Positions 1,969-60,698 of a stretch of DNA of 64,000 nucleotides are shown here, one piece after another. Location of the stretch: the IMG/VR virus record IMGVR_UViG_3300032268_000832, positions 242,464-306,463 of that record. One strand, given 5' to 3'. This DNA comes from a virus. The stretch's first letter is position 1, and each line of letters opens with the position of its first letter. A program made the translations under genes and the position numbers. Under the pieces are notes generated by a model. The model was not told the DNA's origin and ran no database searches. It saw nothing but the letters and a program-made list of their open reading frames with translations.

Positions 1969-2044
1969 ATGAGGATAGCTCAGTTGGTAGAGCGCTCGGT
2001 GGTTCGCTGCCGAGAGGTTGCAGGTTCGAGTCCTGCTCCTTGTA
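1969..2044 (+). ncRNA. tRNA-like RNA with closed anticodon arm
   Basis: Acceptor ATGAGGA/TCCTTGT (with two wobble pairs), standard D arm (GCTC-AGTTGGTA-GAGC), AGGTT variable loop, T arm GCAGG-TTCGAGT-CCTGC, discriminator A. The anticodon arm is 20 nt instead of 17: CTCGG then a 10-nt segment then CCGAG, and the 10 nt can pair again to give 8 bp capped by TTCG. There is thus no normal 7-nt loop or assignable anticodon. Same plan as the element at 44220-44295. Confidence 0.7.
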
Positions 2045-2079
2045 CAAAAAAATTTTTAACTATTATTTAACAAAAAAAT

Positions 2080-18617: not shown

Positions 18618-18634
18618 TATAAATTTTAATTATT

Positions 18635-20194
18635 ATGAGACTTAAAAGAAATATTATTCGAAAACTAGAACAAGCTATCGCTAACGATGATATGTCATCT
18701 ATTAAATCGATTGAAAAGGTTCTAAAAAAAGTATTGGAAAAACCAGAAAACTTGGTTTTATGTTCTGATGCTTACAAGTATTCACACCACAGATTCTATG
18801 GTAGTGAAATGACCAAAATGGTTTCTTATTTGGAATCAAGAGGTGGTAAATTCTCTGAAACCGTATTCTATGGCCTTCAAATTATCCTTAAACGTTTCTT
18901 AGAGGGTGTTGCTATCACAAAAGAAGAAGTTGATGAAGCTTACGAATTCTTAGGTACTAAATACGGTGTATTTGGTCGTGATGATGTGTTCGACAGAAGT
19001 AAATTTGATTACATTGTTGAAAAATACGATGGTCATTTACCAGTTAGTATCAAAGCGGTGCCTGAGGGAACTGTTGTAGGTACTCACAATGTACTTATGG
19101 TTATTGAAAGCCTTGACCCTGAGTGTGCATGGTTAACTAACTTCTTAGAAACAATCTTGTTACAAGTTTGGTATCCAATTACTGTTGCTACGTTATCAAG
19201 AGAAGTACGAAAAATTGTTGATGAAGCTTATAGAAATTGTACTTCATACGATGATGGTCTTAGAAGTTTCCTTGTAGATTTTGTACTTAATGATTTTGGA
19301 TTCCGAGGGGTATCATCAGTTGAATCAGCTGGTATTGGTGGTTCTGCACACCTTGTAAACTTTAGAGGTTCAGATACGCTTATGGGTTCAAAATTCATTG
19401 TAGAAAACTACAACACCGACACTATTTATGGTTTATCTATCCCTGCGACAGAACATTCTATTATGACTCTAAGAGGTGAAGAAGGTGAATTAGATTTAAT
19501 GAAACGTGTTTTAACACTTTTCCCAACTGGTATCGTTGCTTGTGTGTCTGATTCATTCAACATTTTTAGAGCGTGTAAAGACTATTGGGGTGGTGAATTG
19601 AAAGAATTAATCCTGTCAAGACCTACTGAGCCTGGTAATCAACTTGTTATCCGTCCTGACTCTGGTCACGTAATCAACTCACTAAGAGAGATTTTCCACA
19701 TTCTTTTCGAACAATTTGGTTATACCGTAAACGAAAAAGGTTACAAAGTTTTACCTCCACAAGTTCGTGTTATTCAAGGTGATGGTATCAATTTAGAGTC
19801 TATCAAAGAAATCTACGCATTGTTGGAAGAAGAAAAAATATCACCAGAAAACTTAGCGTTAGGTATGGGTGGTAAATTACTTCAAGCTGGTATTGACCGT
19901 GATACTCAAAACTTTGCAACAAAAGCTTGTTTTGCGGTACTTGATGGAAAAGAAGTTGATGTGGTAAAAGCACCAACTGAAATGGATGCTGATGGTAACA
20001 TTACCAAATCATTCAAGAAGTCTAAAAAAGGACGTTTGAAATTGGTTAAAAATGAAGATGGTACATACAGAACAGTTACATCTTCAGAGGTTGAATTTGA
20101 TACTGTAAAAGACGAGTTAGTTGAAGTGTTTAACATGGGTAAGCTAACACACGAATGGTCTTTTGAACAAGTAAGAGAAAAAGCGAAATTATAA
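18635..20194 (+). CDS. nadV: nicotinamide phosphoribosyltransferase
   Basis: 519 residues. An extra 40-residue N-terminus precedes the NAMPT start NLVLCSDAYKYSHHRFYGS. Active-site blocks are intact: FRGVSSVESAGIGGSAHLVNFRGSDT (substrate Asp), PATEHSIMT (catalytic His), VIRPDSGHVI (phosphate/ribose binding), LGMGGKLLQ. Converts nicotinamide and PRPP to NMN in the cytosol, bypassing host deamidation. Together with the NMNAT it forms the two-enzyme salvage route known from phages that rebuild NAD against NAD-depleting defences (NARP2 type). Confidence 0.96.
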   Translation: MRLKRNIIRKLEQAIANDDMSSIKSIEKVLKKVLEKPENLVLCSDAYKYSHHRFYGSEMTKMVSYLESRGGKFSETVFYGLQIILKRFLEGVAITKEEVDEAYEFLGTKYGVFGRDDVFDRSKFDYIVEKYDGHLPVSIKAVPEGTVVGTHNVLMVIESLDPECAWLTNFLETILLQVWYPITVATLSREVRKIVDEAYRNCTSYDDGLRSFLVDFVLNDFGFRGVSSVESAGIGGSAHLVNFRGSDTLMGSKFIVENYNTDTIYGLSIPATEHSIMTLRGEEGELDLMKRVLTLFPTGIVACVSDSFNIFRACKDYWGGELKELILSRPTEPGNQLVIRPDSGHVINSLREIFHILFEQFGYTVNEKGYKVLPPQVRVIQGDGINLESIKEIYALLEEEKISPENLALGMGGKLLQAGIDRDTQNFATKACFAVLDGKEVDVVKAPTEMDADGNITKSFKKSKKGRLKLVKNEDGTYRTVTSSEVEFDTVKDELVEVFNMGKLTHEWSFEQVREKAKL

Positions 20195-25926: not shown

Positions 25927-25942
25927 CTAAAAATTACAAAAT

Positions 25943-26926
25943 ATGTTAGAATCTGTCCTTATATCAATTGATGGTCGAGAAAAATTGGCCGAAGAAATTG
26001 TTAAAGCAATCCGAAAAAAATCGTCAGACCCGATAGTTGTTGATTATGCTAATTCACAAAAGTTTTCAGATGGGGAACTATGTGTTGATTTTTGCAATTC
26101 AATTAGAGGTAAACGTGTTTATCTATTGACTAGTCCAAACAACTCGGATGAAATCATCAAATTAAATTTAGCCATAGATGCCGCAAAGCGTGCAGCTGCT
26201 AAAGAAATTATTCCAATATTACCTTATTTTCCGTATGCTCGTCAAGACAAAAAAGACCAATCAAGAGGACCAATCGGTGCTAAGGTTATGGTTGAAATGA
26301 TTGAGCATAGAGGAGCAACTGGTGTTATTACTTTTGATTTACATGCTGACCAAATTCAAGGTTTTTTCAACATACCAGTAACCCATCTAGAAGGTAAAAA
26401 TATATTTGATAGCTATGTGGCTAGTATCTATAACGAAAACACAATCTTGTGTGGTCCTGATGCTGGTTCTGGTAAACGTGTAAAGCGTATGAAAGACCAA
26501 TTAGGTAAATACCATGACATTTCAATCAATTATGTTATGTTGGATAAAACTCGTAAACAAGCTAATGTAATCGATGAAATGGTTATTATTGGTGATGTGA
26601 CTGGTAAAGATGTCATCATATTGGATGATATGGTTGATACAGCTGGTACACTATGTAAAGCGGCTGAAGTAATTATGGAAGCTGGTGCCAATAGCGTAAG
26701 AGCAATCATCAGCCATGGTGTATTATCTGGACCTGCTTTGGGTCGTATTGAAAAATCAGTATTAAAAGAACTTATTATTAGCGATTCTTTGGATAAAGGT
26801 GAAGGCGATATAGGTTTCGGTGTTCAAAAGATAAAAGTCGTGTCAATGGCAAAACAAATAGCCTTAGCAATTATAGCAATTAATAGTCATTCAAGTTATG
26901 AAGGGCTTAAAAAAGAACGTTTCTAA
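25943..26926 (+). CDS. prs: ribose-phosphate pyrophosphokinase (PRPP synthetase)
   Basis: 327 residues, normal length. FPYARQDKKDQSRGPIGAK (ATP loop), FDLHADQIQGFF (metal/ATP), and the PRPP-binding loop VIILDDMVDTAGT are intact. Makes PRPP from ribose 5-phosphate and ATP. PRPP is a cosubstrate of NadV at 18635, so the window has three consecutive activities of the nicotinamide route. It also feeds nucleotide synthesis. Overlaps the next gene by one base. Confidence 0.95.
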   Translation: MLESVLISIDGREKLAEEIVKAIRKKSSDPIVVDYANSQKFSDGELCVDFCNSIRGKRVYLLTSPNNSDEIIKLNLAIDAAKRAAAKEIIPILPYFPYARQDKKDQSRGPIGAKVMVEMIEHRGATGVITFDLHADQIQGFFNIPVTHLEGKNIFDSYVASIYNENTILCGPDAGSGKRVKRMKDQLGKYHDISINYVMLDKTRKQANVIDEMVIIGDVTGKDVIILDDMVDTAGTLCKAAEVIMEAGANSVRAIISHGVLSGPALGRIEKSVLKELIISDSLDKGEGDIGFGVQKIKVVSMAKQIALAIIAINSHSSYEGLKKERF

Positions 26927-38143: not shown

Positions 38144-38150
38144 TAAACAG

Positions 38151-38176
38151 CCCGCTATAAAATAGTGGGTTTTTTT
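38151..38176 (+). terminator. rho-independent terminator
   Basis: CCCGCTAT / ATAGTGGG (one G-T), 3-nt loop, T run; just after the HAD gene. Confidence 0.88.
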
Positions 38177-38177
38177 A

Positions 38178-38208
38178 TTGTTAAAAAGAAAAAAAATAAG
38201 TATTTTTG
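38178..38208 (+). promoter_or_regulatory. Bacteroidota-type promoter upstream of rnr
   Basis: TTG 38178-38180, 20 bp, TATTTTTG 38201-38208; ATG at 38213. Confidence 0.75.
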
Positions 38209-38212
38209 TAAT

Positions 38213-40168
38213 ATGAATAAAGAAAATAAAATAAAAATAGGTGATGTTTTAGAAGGTAGAATAAGTGTTAACGCTAGTGGTTCAGCATATTTGACGGACC
38301 CAAATCTACCAAAAGACATTTACATACACAAATCCAACACCAACAAGGCGTTGCATTTGGATAAAGTAAAAATCCGCACCAAAGAAGGTGTTGGTAGAGC
38401 AATGGAAGGTGAAGTAATTGAAATCGTTGAACGATTCAGAACGGAATTTGTAGGTACGCTTCAAATAAGTCCTAAATTTGCATTTTTTATCCCAGACAGT
38501 AACAAATTACCAATAGACTTTTTTATACCGTTAAACTCGCTTAATAAAGCTCAAAATGGTCAAAAAGTTGTTGTTAGACTTACTGAATGGAAAGATGATG
38601 CAAAGAACCCTAATGGTGAAGTTATTCGCGTGTTGGGTGATGCTGGTGAGCACGAAACTGAGATACACAGTATACTTGAAGAATATGGATTACCATACGA
38701 TTTTGAGGAAGATGTGTTAGCAGAAGCTAGAGCGATTCCAATTGAGATAACACAAGCTGAAATTGATAAACGTAGAGATATGCGTAACGTACTTACGTTC
38801 ACCATTGACCCAGCGGATGCCAAAGATTTTGATGATGCGTTGAGCGTTGAATGGGTTGACGGTGAGCTGTTTGTTGGTATTCACATTGCTGACGTATCAC
38901 ACTACTTACGTCCAGACACAGAGTTAGACAAAGAAGCGTTTGCCAGAGGTACCAGTGTGTATTTAGTTGACAGATGCGTTCCAATGCTTCCTGAGAACTT
39001 ATCTAACGGATTGTGTAGTCTTAGACCTAACGAGGACAAATTGTGTTTCTCAGCGGTGTTTAAGTTGGACCAAAACGGTCATGTGTTGGAAGAATGGTTC
39101 GGTAGAACTGTGATAAACTCTAACCGTAGATTTACTTACGAAGAAGCACAGATGCTTATTGAAGCCAAAAAGTTACCAGAAGAATATGAAGAATATTTCC
39201 AAACAGAGGAAGGTCATGCGTTATGGAAATCTATTCTAACACTTAATAGAATAGCACAGAAAATGCGCAAAGGTCGTTCAAAGAAAGGTTCTATTTCGTT
39301 TGACAAACAAGAGGTTAAGTTCAAGTTGGATGAAAACAACAAACCAGTTGGTATTCATTTCAAGGTTGCAAAGGATTCAAATAAACTTATTGAAGAATTT
39401 ATGTTGTTGGCAAACAGACATGTTGCTCAATACATAAACAAACGAGAATTACCTAATGTAAACAGAGCGCATGATAAACCTAACGATGATAAATTAAATA
39501 ACTTAAAAGAATTTATTTCACAGTTTGGATATGAAATCCGTATTGATACACCAGAAGAAACTACAAGAACGCTTAACCAGTTGTTGTTGGACGTTAGAGG
39601 TACTGCTGAGGAAGATATGATTAACAACTTGGTTGTGAGAACAATGCAGAAAGCAAACTATACAACCAAAAACATTGGTCACTATGGACTTGGGTTCAAA
39701 GACTACAGCCACTTCACCAGTCCGATTAGACGTTATCCTGACGTTATAACACACAGACTGTTAGGGTTGTACTTGGAGAACAAACCAACGCTACCTAAGA
39801 TTGAAAAACTAGAAGCTAGATGTCAACACTTATCTGAAAGAGAAAAGAAAGCACAGAAAGCCGAAAGAGATTCAATTAAATTTATGCAGTGTGTGTATAT
39901 GAGTGAAAACGTAGGTAAAGTGTTCAAAGGAATAGTTAGTTCTGTAACGGAATACGGTATCTTTGTTGAAATTTTAGAGAACAAGTGTGAAGGACTTATC
40001 AAATTATCTGAAATACAAGGTGACACATATCAAGCTGATACTTTAAATCATTGTGTTAAGGGTTATAACACTGGTCACAAGATTAGACTTGGTGATATGG
40101 TTCATGTAATAGTTTCAAGTGTAGATATAGAAAAAAAGAACATAAATTTATCTTTGATTAACCTTTAA
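38213..40168 (+). CDS. rnr: ribonuclease R (RNB family 3'-5' exoribonuclease)
   Basis: 651 residues from ATG 38213, just after the promoter (a longer frame begins inside the terminator). Cold-shock-like N-terminal domains, RNB catalytic domain with FTIDPADAKDFDDALSVEW (catalytic Asp cluster, about 193-211) and DYSHFTSPIRRYPDVITHRLL, and a C-terminal S1 domain (GKVFKGIVSSVTEYGIFVEI). Shorter than host RNase R at the N-terminus. Degrades structured RNA and trims; also linked to trans-translation in bacteria, so relevant to SmpB. Confidence 0.95.
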   Translation: MNKENKIKIGDVLEGRISVNASGSAYLTDPNLPKDIYIHKSNTNKALHLDKVKIRTKEGVGRAMEGEVIEIVERFRTEFVGTLQISPKFAFFIPDSNKLPIDFFIPLNSLNKAQNGQKVVVRLTEWKDDAKNPNGEVIRVLGDAGEHETEIHSILEEYGLPYDFEEDVLAEARAIPIEITQAEIDKRRDMRNVLTFTIDPADAKDFDDALSVEWVDGELFVGIHIADVSHYLRPDTELDKEAFARGTSVYLVDRCVPMLPENLSNGLCSLRPNEDKLCFSAVFKLDQNGHVLEEWFGRTVINSNRRFTYEEAQMLIEAKKLPEEYEEYFQTEEGHALWKSILTLNRIAQKMRKGRSKKGSISFDKQEVKFKLDENNKPVGIHFKVAKDSNKLIEEFMLLANRHVAQYINKRELPNVNRAHDKPNDDKLNNLKEFISQFGYEIRIDTPEETTRTLNQLLLDVRGTAEEDMINNLVVRTMQKANYTTKNIGHYGLGFKDYSHFTSPIRRYPDVITHRLLGLYLENKPTLPKIEKLEARCQHLSEREKKAQKAERDSIKFMQCVYMSENVGKVFKGIVSSVTEYGIFVEILENKCEGLIKLSEIQGDTYQADTLNHCVKGYNTGHKIRLGDMVHVIVSSVDIEKKNINLSLINL

Positions 40169-43585: not shown

Positions 43586-43684
43586 GCGAGAGTGGCGAAG
43601 TTGGTAAACGCTAAGGTTTTTAGCCAGAAGTACTATGGAACAACTAAGAACTTGGTGTCGGTGGTTCGAGCCCACCCTCTCGCA
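43586..43684 (+). ncRNA. tRNA-Leu-like RNA with long closed anticodon arm
   Basis: 99 nt. Acceptor GCGAGAG/CTCTCGC perfect, D arm GCG-AAGTTGGTAAA-CGC, T arm GGTGG-TTCGAGC-CCACC, discriminator A. Between them: TAAG 43612-43615 with CTTG 43651-43654, a bulged G, then TTTTTAG 43617-43623 with CTAAGAA 43644-43650 (one wobble), ending in a CCA/TGG mini-hairpin. The anticodon position is inside a helix. D loop and acceptor look like a leucine tRNA; a nearby reading gives no credible anticodon. Confidence 0.7.
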
Positions 43685-43901: not shown

Positions 43902-44019
43902 GGTTAGGTGGCGGAATAGTAGACGCTCGGAGGTCAAAAGATTTTGTACATAACTGCGGTAAGTGAGGATATTGACTGTTGAACACTTACAATTACAGGT
44001 TCAAGTCCTGTCCTAACCA
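43902..44019 (+). ncRNA. tRNA-Leu-like RNA with inserted hairpins
   Basis: 118 nt. Acceptor GGTTAGG/CCTAACC perfect, D arm GCG...CGC with AGTAGA loop, T arm ACAGG-TTCAAGT-CCTGT, discriminator A. The variable arm is a 7-bp stem GTAAGTG 43959-43965 / CACTTAC 43984-43990. The anticodon region, with CGGAG paired imperfectly to CTGCG, encloses CAAAAGATTTTG, which folds back on itself, so a leucine CAA anticodon would be base-paired. Confidence 0.65.
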
Positions 44020-44219: not shown

Positions 44220-44295
44220 ATCCGTATAGCTCAATTGGTAGAGTATTCGGTCCGAGGGGGCCGAAAGGTTGTAGGTTCGAGTCCTACTGCGGATA
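44220..44295 (+). ncRNA. tRNA-like RNA with closed anticodon arm
   Basis: Acceptor ATCCGTA/TGCGGAT, D arm GCTC-AATTGGTA-GAGT, variable AGGTT, T arm GTAGG-TTCGAGT-CCTAC, discriminator A. The anticodon arm is TTCGG, 10 nt (TCCGAGGGGG), CCGAA; the loop can close to TTCGGTCC/GGGCCGAA with tetraloop GAGG. This 20-nt arm has the same plan as that at 1969-2044. Confidence 0.75.
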
Positions 44296-44313
44296 CAACT
44301 AAAAGTATTGAAT

Positions 44314-59821: not shown

Positions 59822-60271
59822 ACTGGTTGGTGTTAACCAACTACAAGGCTAAACATTGAATACCTTTGTAAATTAGTAAAACGCAAACCCTCAACTATCT
59901 ATTGCAATAGATTAGGGGCACTGGTTGAAACTGGATGACTTAATTTACATAAAGATGCTATCAGTAATGGTAGATGTGTTGGGGTAAATGAGAAAACCCT
60001 GAACGGTCATAACAGTTATTATATTCTTAAAGAAGTTAAGAAGGTAAAGAAGATATAATATAGGCTGATGGCGGTTTACTTACAACACAAATGAGTTCTC
60101 AGCAAGTAGTTAACTGATGTAAATGCTCTGTACTTGAAATGTAACTATAAAGTATAATTCATTAAAGATTCTTAATCAAATGGTAGTACATTATCTATGA
60201 TTAACTACGTGACCCTACTCTTATATAAGCTTACGCAGAAATGTTGTAGTAATATAAGACAAGAGGGTGCT
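59822..60271 (+). ncRNA. large structured noncoding RNA, 5' part
   Basis: No ORF for about 900 bp. Perfect stems: GTTGGT/ACCAAC hairpin 59826-59841, TGTAAATTA 59867-59875 with TAATTTACA 59941-59949 enclosing CCCT/AGGG and ATCTATT-GC-AATAGAT (59897-59912), a TATTATAT/ATATAATA arm near 60020-60060 and CAAGTA/TACTTG and CTTATAT/ATATAAG arms further on. Length, density of long-range stems and position next to a tRNA-like gene in a large phage resemble ornate RNAs of the ROOL/GOLLD kind, but membership is not shown. Confidence 0.6.
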
Positions 60272-60277
60272 AAAATA

Positions 60278-60525
60278 AATCACTTGACTTGAAGATAAAC
60301 AATAATATCAATACCTATAAACATAAAGTAGGCTTATACCTTTAGGAGTATTATAAACTGTACTAGCAGTTGTGTTTATTGTAAAGATTAACGAAGAATA
60401 ATAGAGTAACTACTTAGGCGTAATGTATAAAGTGTTGAATGGGCTGTTTGAAGTAGTGAGGGTATCCTCGTAACTGGGGTGTAGTATGAAGTTATTCCAC
60501 TAGAATTTGGTCAAGTGATTTTTTT
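60278..60525 (+). ncRNA. large structured noncoding RNA, 3' domain with terminator-like end
   Basis: An 11-bp perfect stem, AATCACTTGAC 60278-60288 with GTCAAGTGATT 60510-60520, closes a 243-nt domain and is followed by a T run. The interior is AT-rich with several short hairpins and the AACTGGGGTG string near 60472. Confidence 0.6.
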
Positions 60526-60529
60526 ATAT

Positions 60530-60698
60530 AGTCAGGTGGCGGAAAGCTTATAGTGTGAGAAATCCTGCTATAACGAGGTAGACGCTGATTGGCATGTGGA
60601 TTCGATAGGTGAAAGACCTATAGGGAAGTAAGGTTCAAAAGTAATCCGATACACGACATGCAGTTCCTTACGTACAGGTTCGAATCCTGTCCTGACTA
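60530..60698 (+). ncRNA. tRNA-Leu-like RNA with D-loop and anticodon-arm insertions
   Basis: 169 nt. Acceptor AGTCAGG/CCTGACT, D stem GCG/CGC, T arm ACAGG-TTCGAAT-CCTGT and discriminator A are normal. The D loop holds an inserted hairpin TTATAG 60548-60553 / CTATAA 60568-60573. The anticodon arm is GCATGT 60592-60597 / ACATGC 60656-60661 enclosing GGATT/AATCC and ATAGGT-GAAAG-ACCTAT, and a TTCAAAAG string with a possible CAA anticodon. No 7-nt anticodon loop is left. Confidence 0.65.

What the first reader, a model, noticed from the sequence alone, without database searches (positions are those of the whole stretch)
59822..60525. About 0.7-kb structured noncoding RNA next to a tRNA-like gene
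No ORF, many perfect long-range stems, an 11-bp closing stem and T-run end. Such size and tRNA proximity match the large ornate phage RNAs (ROOL, GOLLD), which can assemble into multimeric cages; I cannot tell whether this is one of them or a new class.
Basis: partly seen in the sequence, partly recalled or inferred. Interest (0 to 1): 0.8.

Follow-up and report, generated by a model that had tools for sequence, protein, structure and literature searches.

The report
Two new phage structured RNAs, side by side
The stretch holds not one RNA but two unrelated, apparently undescribed structured RNA genes followed by an odd tRNA-like element in a giant phage; both RNAs recur in scores of other phages, often beside the phages' own ribosome-rescue RNA (tmRNA), which hints at an unknown role in translation during infection.

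Summary
The noncoding RNA is real, but it is two RNAs. RNA-A (59845-60273) and RNA-B (60277-60521) are separate conserved families, followed by a Leu-type tRNA-like element (60530-60697). Neither matches Rfam 15 in relaxed searches. ROOL and GOLLD models find nothing in this 306-kb phage record; the ROOL model works in a positive control. RNA-A: 81 non-redundant viral homologues; three core helices covary almost perfectly (0/500 shuffles), and a model built without the window finds it at 86 bits. RNA-B: about 40 non-redundant homologues, a covarying closing stem and a probable loop-loop pairing; a model built without the window finds it at 106 bits. RNA-A is usually single-copy, has exchangeable variable arms, and its core motif was not found as an RNA in bacterial genomes. 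Cultured carriers: Cellulophaga phages phi14:2 (both RNAs), phi4:1 and phi17:2 (RNA-B). The two RNAs usually lie within 1-2 kb of each other, in changing order. About half of RNA-A loci have a tmRNA, a Leu-like tRNA-like element or a tRNA nearby. Best reading: two new trans-acting structural RNA classes with a translation-linked role. No transcription data exist; function is inferred.

The parts
59845..60273 (+). RNA-A, whole conserved RNA (H1 hairpin to GGGUGCUAA), 429 nt
   Evidence: 81 non-redundant homologues; covariation; model without the window scores 86.4 bits, E 1e-16
59846..59866 (+). H1 hairpin, AGG/CCU stem with invariant loop UAAACAUUGA (59850-59859)
   Evidence: stem varies with compensation: AGC/GCU, ACTCA/TGAGT, AGTCGT/ACGACT, CAGC/GCTG
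59867..59949 (+). H2 (UGUAAAUUA 59867-59875 with UAAUUUACA 59941-59949) enclosing variable arm V1
   Evidence: sequence and homologues; not counted separately
59958..59973 (+). H3 hairpin CUAUC-AGUAAU-GGUAG
   Evidence: 100% paired, 5 of 5 pairs with two-sided changes in 33 homologues
59975..60089 (+). H4 (UGUGUUG 59975-59981 with CAACACA 60083-60089) enclosing H5 and variable arm V2
   Evidence: 99.1% paired, 7 of 7 pairs with two-sided changes; own-partner control
59982..59999 (+). H5 hairpin GGGU...ACCC, loop with UGAGAA (59989-59994), complementary to junction UUCUCA (60096-60101)
   Evidence: H5 92.4% paired, 3 of 4 pairs compensated; loop pairing nearly invariant, one compensatory case in L121
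60090..60105 (+). invariant junction AAUGAGUUCUCAGCAA, most conserved stretch
   Evidence: alignment A1; partly by construction, since homologues were gathered with it
60106..60208 (+). H7 (GUAGUUA with UAACUAC) enclosing variable arm V3; an optional arm
   Evidence: some compensated variants but mostly invariant, not above shuffles; deleted as a unit in about a dozen phages
60212..60273 (+). H8 (ACCCUACUCUUAU with AUAAGA-AGAGGGU) with variable arm V4, then GCUAA pairing AGC
   Evidence: homologues with changed but complementary arms, e.g. L026, L040, L068
60277..60521 (+). RNA-B, whole conserved RNA, 245 nt, closed by 12-bp P1 and followed by a T-run (60519-60525)
   Evidence: 70 viral stretches with core motif; covariation; model without the window scores 106 bits, E 2.4e-17 at 60276-60524
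60277..60288 (+). RNA-B P1, 5' arm (3' arm 60510-60521)
   Evidence: 95% paired, 9 of 9 modelled pairs with two-sided changes; many distinct arm pairs
60354..60386 (+). RNA-B core AAACUGUACUAGCAGUUGUGUUUAUUGUAAAGA: hairpin with CUAG loop and 3' arm of the AUAAACA/UGUUUAU helix; CUAG can pair with CUAG at 60500-60503
   Evidence: loop CUAG goes with CUAG and UCAG with CUGA across homologues
60530..60697 (+). Leu-type tRNA-like element: acceptor AGUCAGG/CCUGACU, D arm with 32-nt insert, T arm, no clear anticodon arm
   Evidence: script search; missed by ARAGORN, Rfam tRNA only 18.7 bits. An intron-bearing tRNA is not excluded

Best explanation
The region encodes two unrelated, compact RNAs that act in trans during phage infection. 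Shown: both are conserved structured RNA families, one copy each in this phage; RNA-A has a fixed core into which variable arms are plugged; both recur in a neighbourhood of Leu-type tRNA-like elements, tRNAs and phage tmRNA. Inferred: they are cut from a shared transcript (few copies of RNA-A have a recognisable Bacteroidetes-type promoter of their own, and RNA-B ends in a U-run), fold on their own, and serve as structural RNAs that bind the translation system (ribosome, tRNA or tmRNA pool, or a synthetase) while the phage takes over the cell. I put about 0.97 on two genuine conserved RNAs, 0.9 on both being new classes, 0.4 on a translation-linked role; the confidence below is for the whole statement.
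For: Homologues and covariation: RNA-A; RNA-B. Independent recovery of the window by models built without it. One copy per record. Separate families: RNA-B occurs apart from RNA-A and in either order. Neighbourhood: 20 of 123 RNA-A loci have a tmRNA, nearly all within 1 kb downstream on the same strand, 27 a Leu-type tRNA-like element, 31 a tRNA; 13 of 32 RNA-A records, and this phage, encode tmRNA above the Rfam cut-off. No RNA family match.
Against: No transcription evidence. Half of RNA-A loci have no tmRNA or tRNA nearby in the DNA held. Neighbourhood may reflect a tolerant RNA-gene island rather than shared function. In 33 of 104 loci an ORF starts within 60 nt of the RNA-A end, as in a leader.
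Confidence: 0.42

Rival explanations
1. RNA-A and/or RNA-B assemble into homo-oligomeric RNA-only particles, as ROOL and GOLLD do, perhaps around tRNAs or ribosomes.
For: Same size range, phage setting, tRNA neighbourhood, elaborate junctions and loop-loop complementarities that could form between molecules; ROOL and GOLLD form cages (PMC12286853).
Against: No sequence or structure relationship to ROOL or GOLLD; the loop pairings can equally be within one molecule; compact core smaller than ROOL.
Confidence: 0.22
2. RNA-A is a mobile or catalytic RNA (intron-like), spread by HNH homing endonucleases.
For: HNH_3/NUMOD4 genes interrupt RNA-A in L108, L110, L122, L130, L155, L162, with a second copy of the H3-H5 block after the ORF. 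HNH domain matches by Pfam were shown for the L108 and L110 proteins; the others are read from sequence.
Against: The great majority of copies have no ORF; insertion sites differ; RNA-A does not split a gene here; no group I or II intron match. Homing genes invade conserved sites, which explains the facts.
Confidence: 0.1
3. RNA-A is a 5' leader that regulates the next gene in cis.
For: In 33 of 104 loci an ORF begins within 60 nt of GCUAA.
Against: The following proteins are unrelated by reading, and in the other loci the next gene is far away or is tmRNA, a tRNA-like element or RNA-B.
Confidence: 0.07
4. It is ROOL or GOLLD.
For: Size, phage origin, tRNA-like neighbour.
Against: No match of either model in the record at E<=10 nor in homologues scanned, with a working ROOL positive control; two separable elements with their own consensus structures.
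Confidence: 0.02
5. No functional RNA: AT-rich intergenic DNA with chance stems.
For: Folding energy not exceptional.
Against: Covariation in scores of divergent viruses.
Confidence: 0.01

Closest known systems
ROOL RNA (Rfam RF03087)
   Same: Phage or prophage-borne large structured RNA, often near tRNA genes, function unknown (PMC12286853)
   Different: No model match; different consensus structure; RNA-A and RNA-B in viruses related to Cellulophaga phages rather than Firmicutes phages and plasmids
GOLLD RNA (Rfam RF02032)
   Same: Large, phage-borne, near tRNAs; tRNAs sometimes inside its linker (PMC12286853)
   Different: No model match; RNA-A and RNA-B are each half its size or less
tmRNA (Rfam RF00023)
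   Same: Frequent downstream neighbour of RNA-A; pseudoknotted RNA of similar length
   Different: RNA-A and RNA-B have no tRNA-like ends and no tag ORF; this phage's tmRNA lies elsewhere in the record
tRNA-Leu
   Same: The 60530-60697 element has Leu-type acceptor, D and T arms and A at the discriminator position
   Different: No recognisable anticodon arm; hypervariable insert; missed by ARAGORN

Membership tests
ROOL (RF03087) | Scores with the ROOL covariance model | tested here: not met
   No match in the 306-kb record at E<=10; positive control pMP118 130.4 bits
ROOL (RF03087) | Forms an octameric or other homo-oligomeric cage | not testable with these tools
   Needs cryo-EM or mass photometry
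GOLLD (RF02032) | Conserved 3' region scored by the covariance model | tested here: not met
   No match at E<=10; no true positive control was run for GOLLD
Any Rfam 15 family (RNA-A, RNA-B) | Reaches a curated score | tested here: not met
   Window and homologues scanned with relaxed thresholds; only tRNA and tmRNA neighbours reach curated or near-curated scores
Group I or II intron | Rfam intron model match and interrupted exons | tested here: not met
   No match for RNA-A in the window or for the HNH-bearing L110; no interrupted gene here. Splicing itself was not testable
RNA-A (new, this report) | R1 match and covarying H3, H4, H5 | tested here: met
   Window 86.4 bits with window left out of the model; helices
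RNA-B (new, this report) | R2 match and covarying P1 | tested here: met
   Window 106 bits with window left out; P1
tRNA-Leu (60530-60697) | Anticodon arm with readable anticodon | tested here: inconclusive
   Not called by ARAGORN; acceptor, D and T arms present; an intron in the anticodon arm is not excluded

The most novel reading that the evidence does not exclude
RNA-A, RNA-B, the hypervariable Leu-type tRNA-like elements and the phage tmRNA are parts of one phage-made RNA apparatus that remodels or protects translation (for example a multi-RNA particle on ribosomes, or decoys against tRNA-targeting defences), with plug-in arms evolving under conflict.
Probability: 0.15. Interest if true: 0.93.

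Novelty: categorically new. Interest (0 to 1): 0.78.

Why it matters
Large ornate phage RNAs are few (ROOL, GOLLD) and their functions are open. This adds two apparently undescribed classes with strong covariation, scores of members and, importantly, cultured carriers (Cellulophaga baltica phages phi14:2, phi4:1, phi17:2), so transcription, structure and deletion phenotypes can be tested. Their association with phage tmRNA and odd tRNA-like elements is a concrete functional lead. The exchangeable arms show complex RNAs diversifying by swapping whole domains.

Tried and rejected
(1) Single-sequence folding of the window RNA: not significant. (2) Lak-B1 megaphage blast hit (E 0.2) and a second R1 hit at window 41569 (E 0.16): protein-coding by reading, chance. 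(3) The one bacterial genome hit, Labilibaculum MAG L134, and viral L032, L036, L054, L076: coding sequence without the other motifs, chance. (4) The ACCTTTGTAAAT of H1/H2 as a promoter: rejected, it forms stems with partners; TAnnTTTG upstream of RNA-A is found in only 10 of 109. (5) The H1 loop motif, also seen in this phage's tmRNA: absent from most other tmRNAs, chance. (6) The first count of the RNA-A pseudoknot was off by one column and was repeated correctly. (7) A family number tried for GOLLD was wrong (a group II intron model); repeated with RF02032. (8) Literature searches found no published description; most subscription papers and bioRxiv are not held.

Full report
WHAT WAS CLAIMED. 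The window is the end of a 306,463-base virus record.

CHECK. No ORF of 50 aa lies between 59813 and 60779. Folding alone is unimpressive: z -1.4 for the whole stretch, -1.75 and -1.48 for its two parts. The long closing stem is real (12 bp, 60277-60288 with 60510-60521) but encloses only the last 245 nt. A relaxed cmscan of the region gives no credible RNA family except a weak tRNA match to the downstream element.

FINDING HOMOLOGUES. A distant blastn found conserved islands in Cellulophaga phage phi14:2, in a region where the record lists only withdrawn ORFs and where ARAGORN finds a tmRNA downstream. The shared island AATGAGTTCTCAGCAAGTA gave 103 stretches in IMG/VR, of which 81 non-redundant ones were aligned (a coding false hit, L036, was still among them). 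In 84,980 bacterial and archaeal species genomes the motif occurs once, inside a protein gene. As far as this motif can show, RNA-A is a virus RNA.

RNA-A (59845-60273). Reading 5' to 3': hairpin H1 with conserved loop UAAACAUUGA; H2 enclosing a variable arm; AAAGAUA; hairpin H3 with CAGUAAUG; H4 enclosing hairpin H5 (loop UUGAGAAA in most) and a second variable arm; junction AAUGAGUUCUCAGCAAG; H7 and H8 with further variable arms; end GGGUGCUAA. On 33 homologues without the window, H3 is 100% paired with 5/5 pairs compensated, H4 99.1% with 7/7, H5 92.4% with 3/4; covariation score 0.390 against 0.094 in shuffles, 0/500, and all slid versions fall far below (that call also counted a mis-set pseudoknot, so the whole-structure figures are conservative). 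A fairer control for H4, matching each 5' region with other sequences' 3' arms, gives 17% perfect pairing against 22 of 28 for the variant arms' own partners. The model finds the window at 86.4 bits, E 1e-16. The H5 loop UGAGAA is complementary to UUCUCA in the junction; both are nearly invariant, with one compensatory case in L121, so this pseudoknot is probable, not proven. H7 is too invariant to test statistically, but in about a dozen phages it is absent as a unit and CAGC joins UGACCC nearly directly, which supports a core closed by AGC/GCU with H7 as an optional arm. The same variable hairpins recur in otherwise unlike RNAs: the arms look like exchangeable cassettes. RNA-A is single-copy in this record and in 26 of 32 others; in several of the rest the extra match is the duplicated block beside an insertion.

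RNA-B (60277-60521). The motif AGCAGTTGTGTTTATTGTA from the 3' part gave 70 viral stretches. In other phages this part lies upstream of RNA-A, or in stretches where RNA-A was not found, so it is a second RNA. P1 covaries widely (AAUCACUUG/CAAGUGAUU, AACUCUUUG/CAAAGAGUU, AGUUCUUUG/CAAAGAACU and more): 95% paired, 9/9 pairs with two-sided changes; AUAAACA/UGUUUAU has a compensatory variant; loop CUAG goes with a downstream CUAG and loop UCAG with CUGA. The last may reflect few evolutionary events, so it is suggestive. A few of the 46 sequences gathered by motif are coding false hits (such as L205 and L230) and were not aligned. The model finds the window at 106 bits, phi4:1 at 81 bits and phi14:2 at 58.5 bits; phi17:2 matches by blastn. 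It is present in 10 of 32 RNA-A records, mostly within 1-2 kb of RNA-A and in either order.

NEIGHBOURHOOD. Of 123 RNA-A loci, 20 have a tmRNA within 2.5 kb (nearly all less than 1 kb downstream, same strand), 27 a Leu-type tRNA-like element missed by ARAGORN, 31 a tRNA, 60 any of these. Thirteen of 32 RNA-A records carry a tmRNA above the Rfam cut-off, as does this phage, where by my reading a ClpP-like ORF precedes it. The window also encodes an RNase R homologue. Bacterial RNase R and ClpP act with tmRNA (established knowledge), so the phage may carry a partial trans-translation kit. These are associations, not proof.

HOW IT MOST LIKELY WORKS. Shown: two conserved RNA folds, virus-borne, physically associated with translation RNAs. 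Inferred: excision from a common transcript, autonomous folding, action in trans on the translation system. The rivals are homo-oligomeric particles like ROOL/GOLLD, a mobile or catalytic RNA, and a cis leader. HNH endonuclease genes interrupt RNA-A in at least six loci; since most copies lack them and insertion sites differ, I read them as invaders of a conserved site.

KNOWN OR NEW. Neither RNA matches Rfam 15; ROOL and GOLLD were tested directly on the record with a ROOL positive control. Paper searches found no description, but the library is partial. I therefore call them new classes by sequence and structure, while their life-style (large phage RNAs near tRNA genes) resembles ROOL and GOLLD (PMC12286853).

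LIMITS. No expression data; the shuffles do not model phylogeny; homologues were gathered by exact motifs, which makes those motifs look more invariant than they are; several arms in my scripts were chosen by best pairing; IMG/VR gave no taxonomy, so a Bacteroidota host is inferred from the Cellulophaga relatives and from Bacteroidetes-type promoter motifs seen by eye.

Noticed in passing
60530-60697; also 43902-44019 and 43586-43684; L007, L047, L057, L062, L065, L084, L096, L106, L119, L121: Leu-type tRNA-like elements (AGTCAGGTGGCGGAATTGGTAGACGC ... ACAGGTTCGAATCCTGTCCTGACTAC) with a hypervariable insert of about 20-150 nt or more where the anticodon arm should be; possibly a further RNA class.
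   Followed up: partly
L108, L110, L122, L130, L155, L162: HNH homing endonuclease genes inserted in the RNA-A gene at the junction AATGAG^TTCTC or after H3, followed by a variant copy of the H3-H5 block.
   Followed up: partly
L007, L014, L061, L069, L083, L089, L091, L098, L107, L140: A further recurring hairpin, GATAAGTG-CCCTC-ACAT-GAGGG with changing but complementary stems, between RNA-A and tmRNA or the next gene.
   Followed up: no
record position 194292-194645 (L248 about 1501-1850); window 38147-40165: This phage encodes its own tmRNA, a ClpP-like ORF just before it (by reading) and an RNase R homologue, a possible phage trans-translation kit.
   Followed up: partly
window 18623-20191 and 25931-26923: Nicotinamide phosphoribosyltransferase and ribose-phosphate pyrophosphokinase genes, the pair expected for NAD salvage, possibly counter-defence.
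   Followed up: no
window 1969-2045 and 44220-44296: tRNAs that ARAGORN reports with four-base anticodons (ttcg, gagg), possible frameshift-type tRNAs or odd loops.
   Followed up: no
NC_021806 (phi14:2), L002 3854-4323: A tmRNA (tag GSSVQKLAMVA) in a cultured Crassvirales phage, in a stretch where the RefSeq record shows only withdrawn ORFs.
   Followed up: partly
L030/L048/L065, L066/L079/L097/L098 and others: Identical or near-identical variable hairpins occur in otherwise unlike RNA-A copies, as if arms were swapped by recombination.
   Followed up: no
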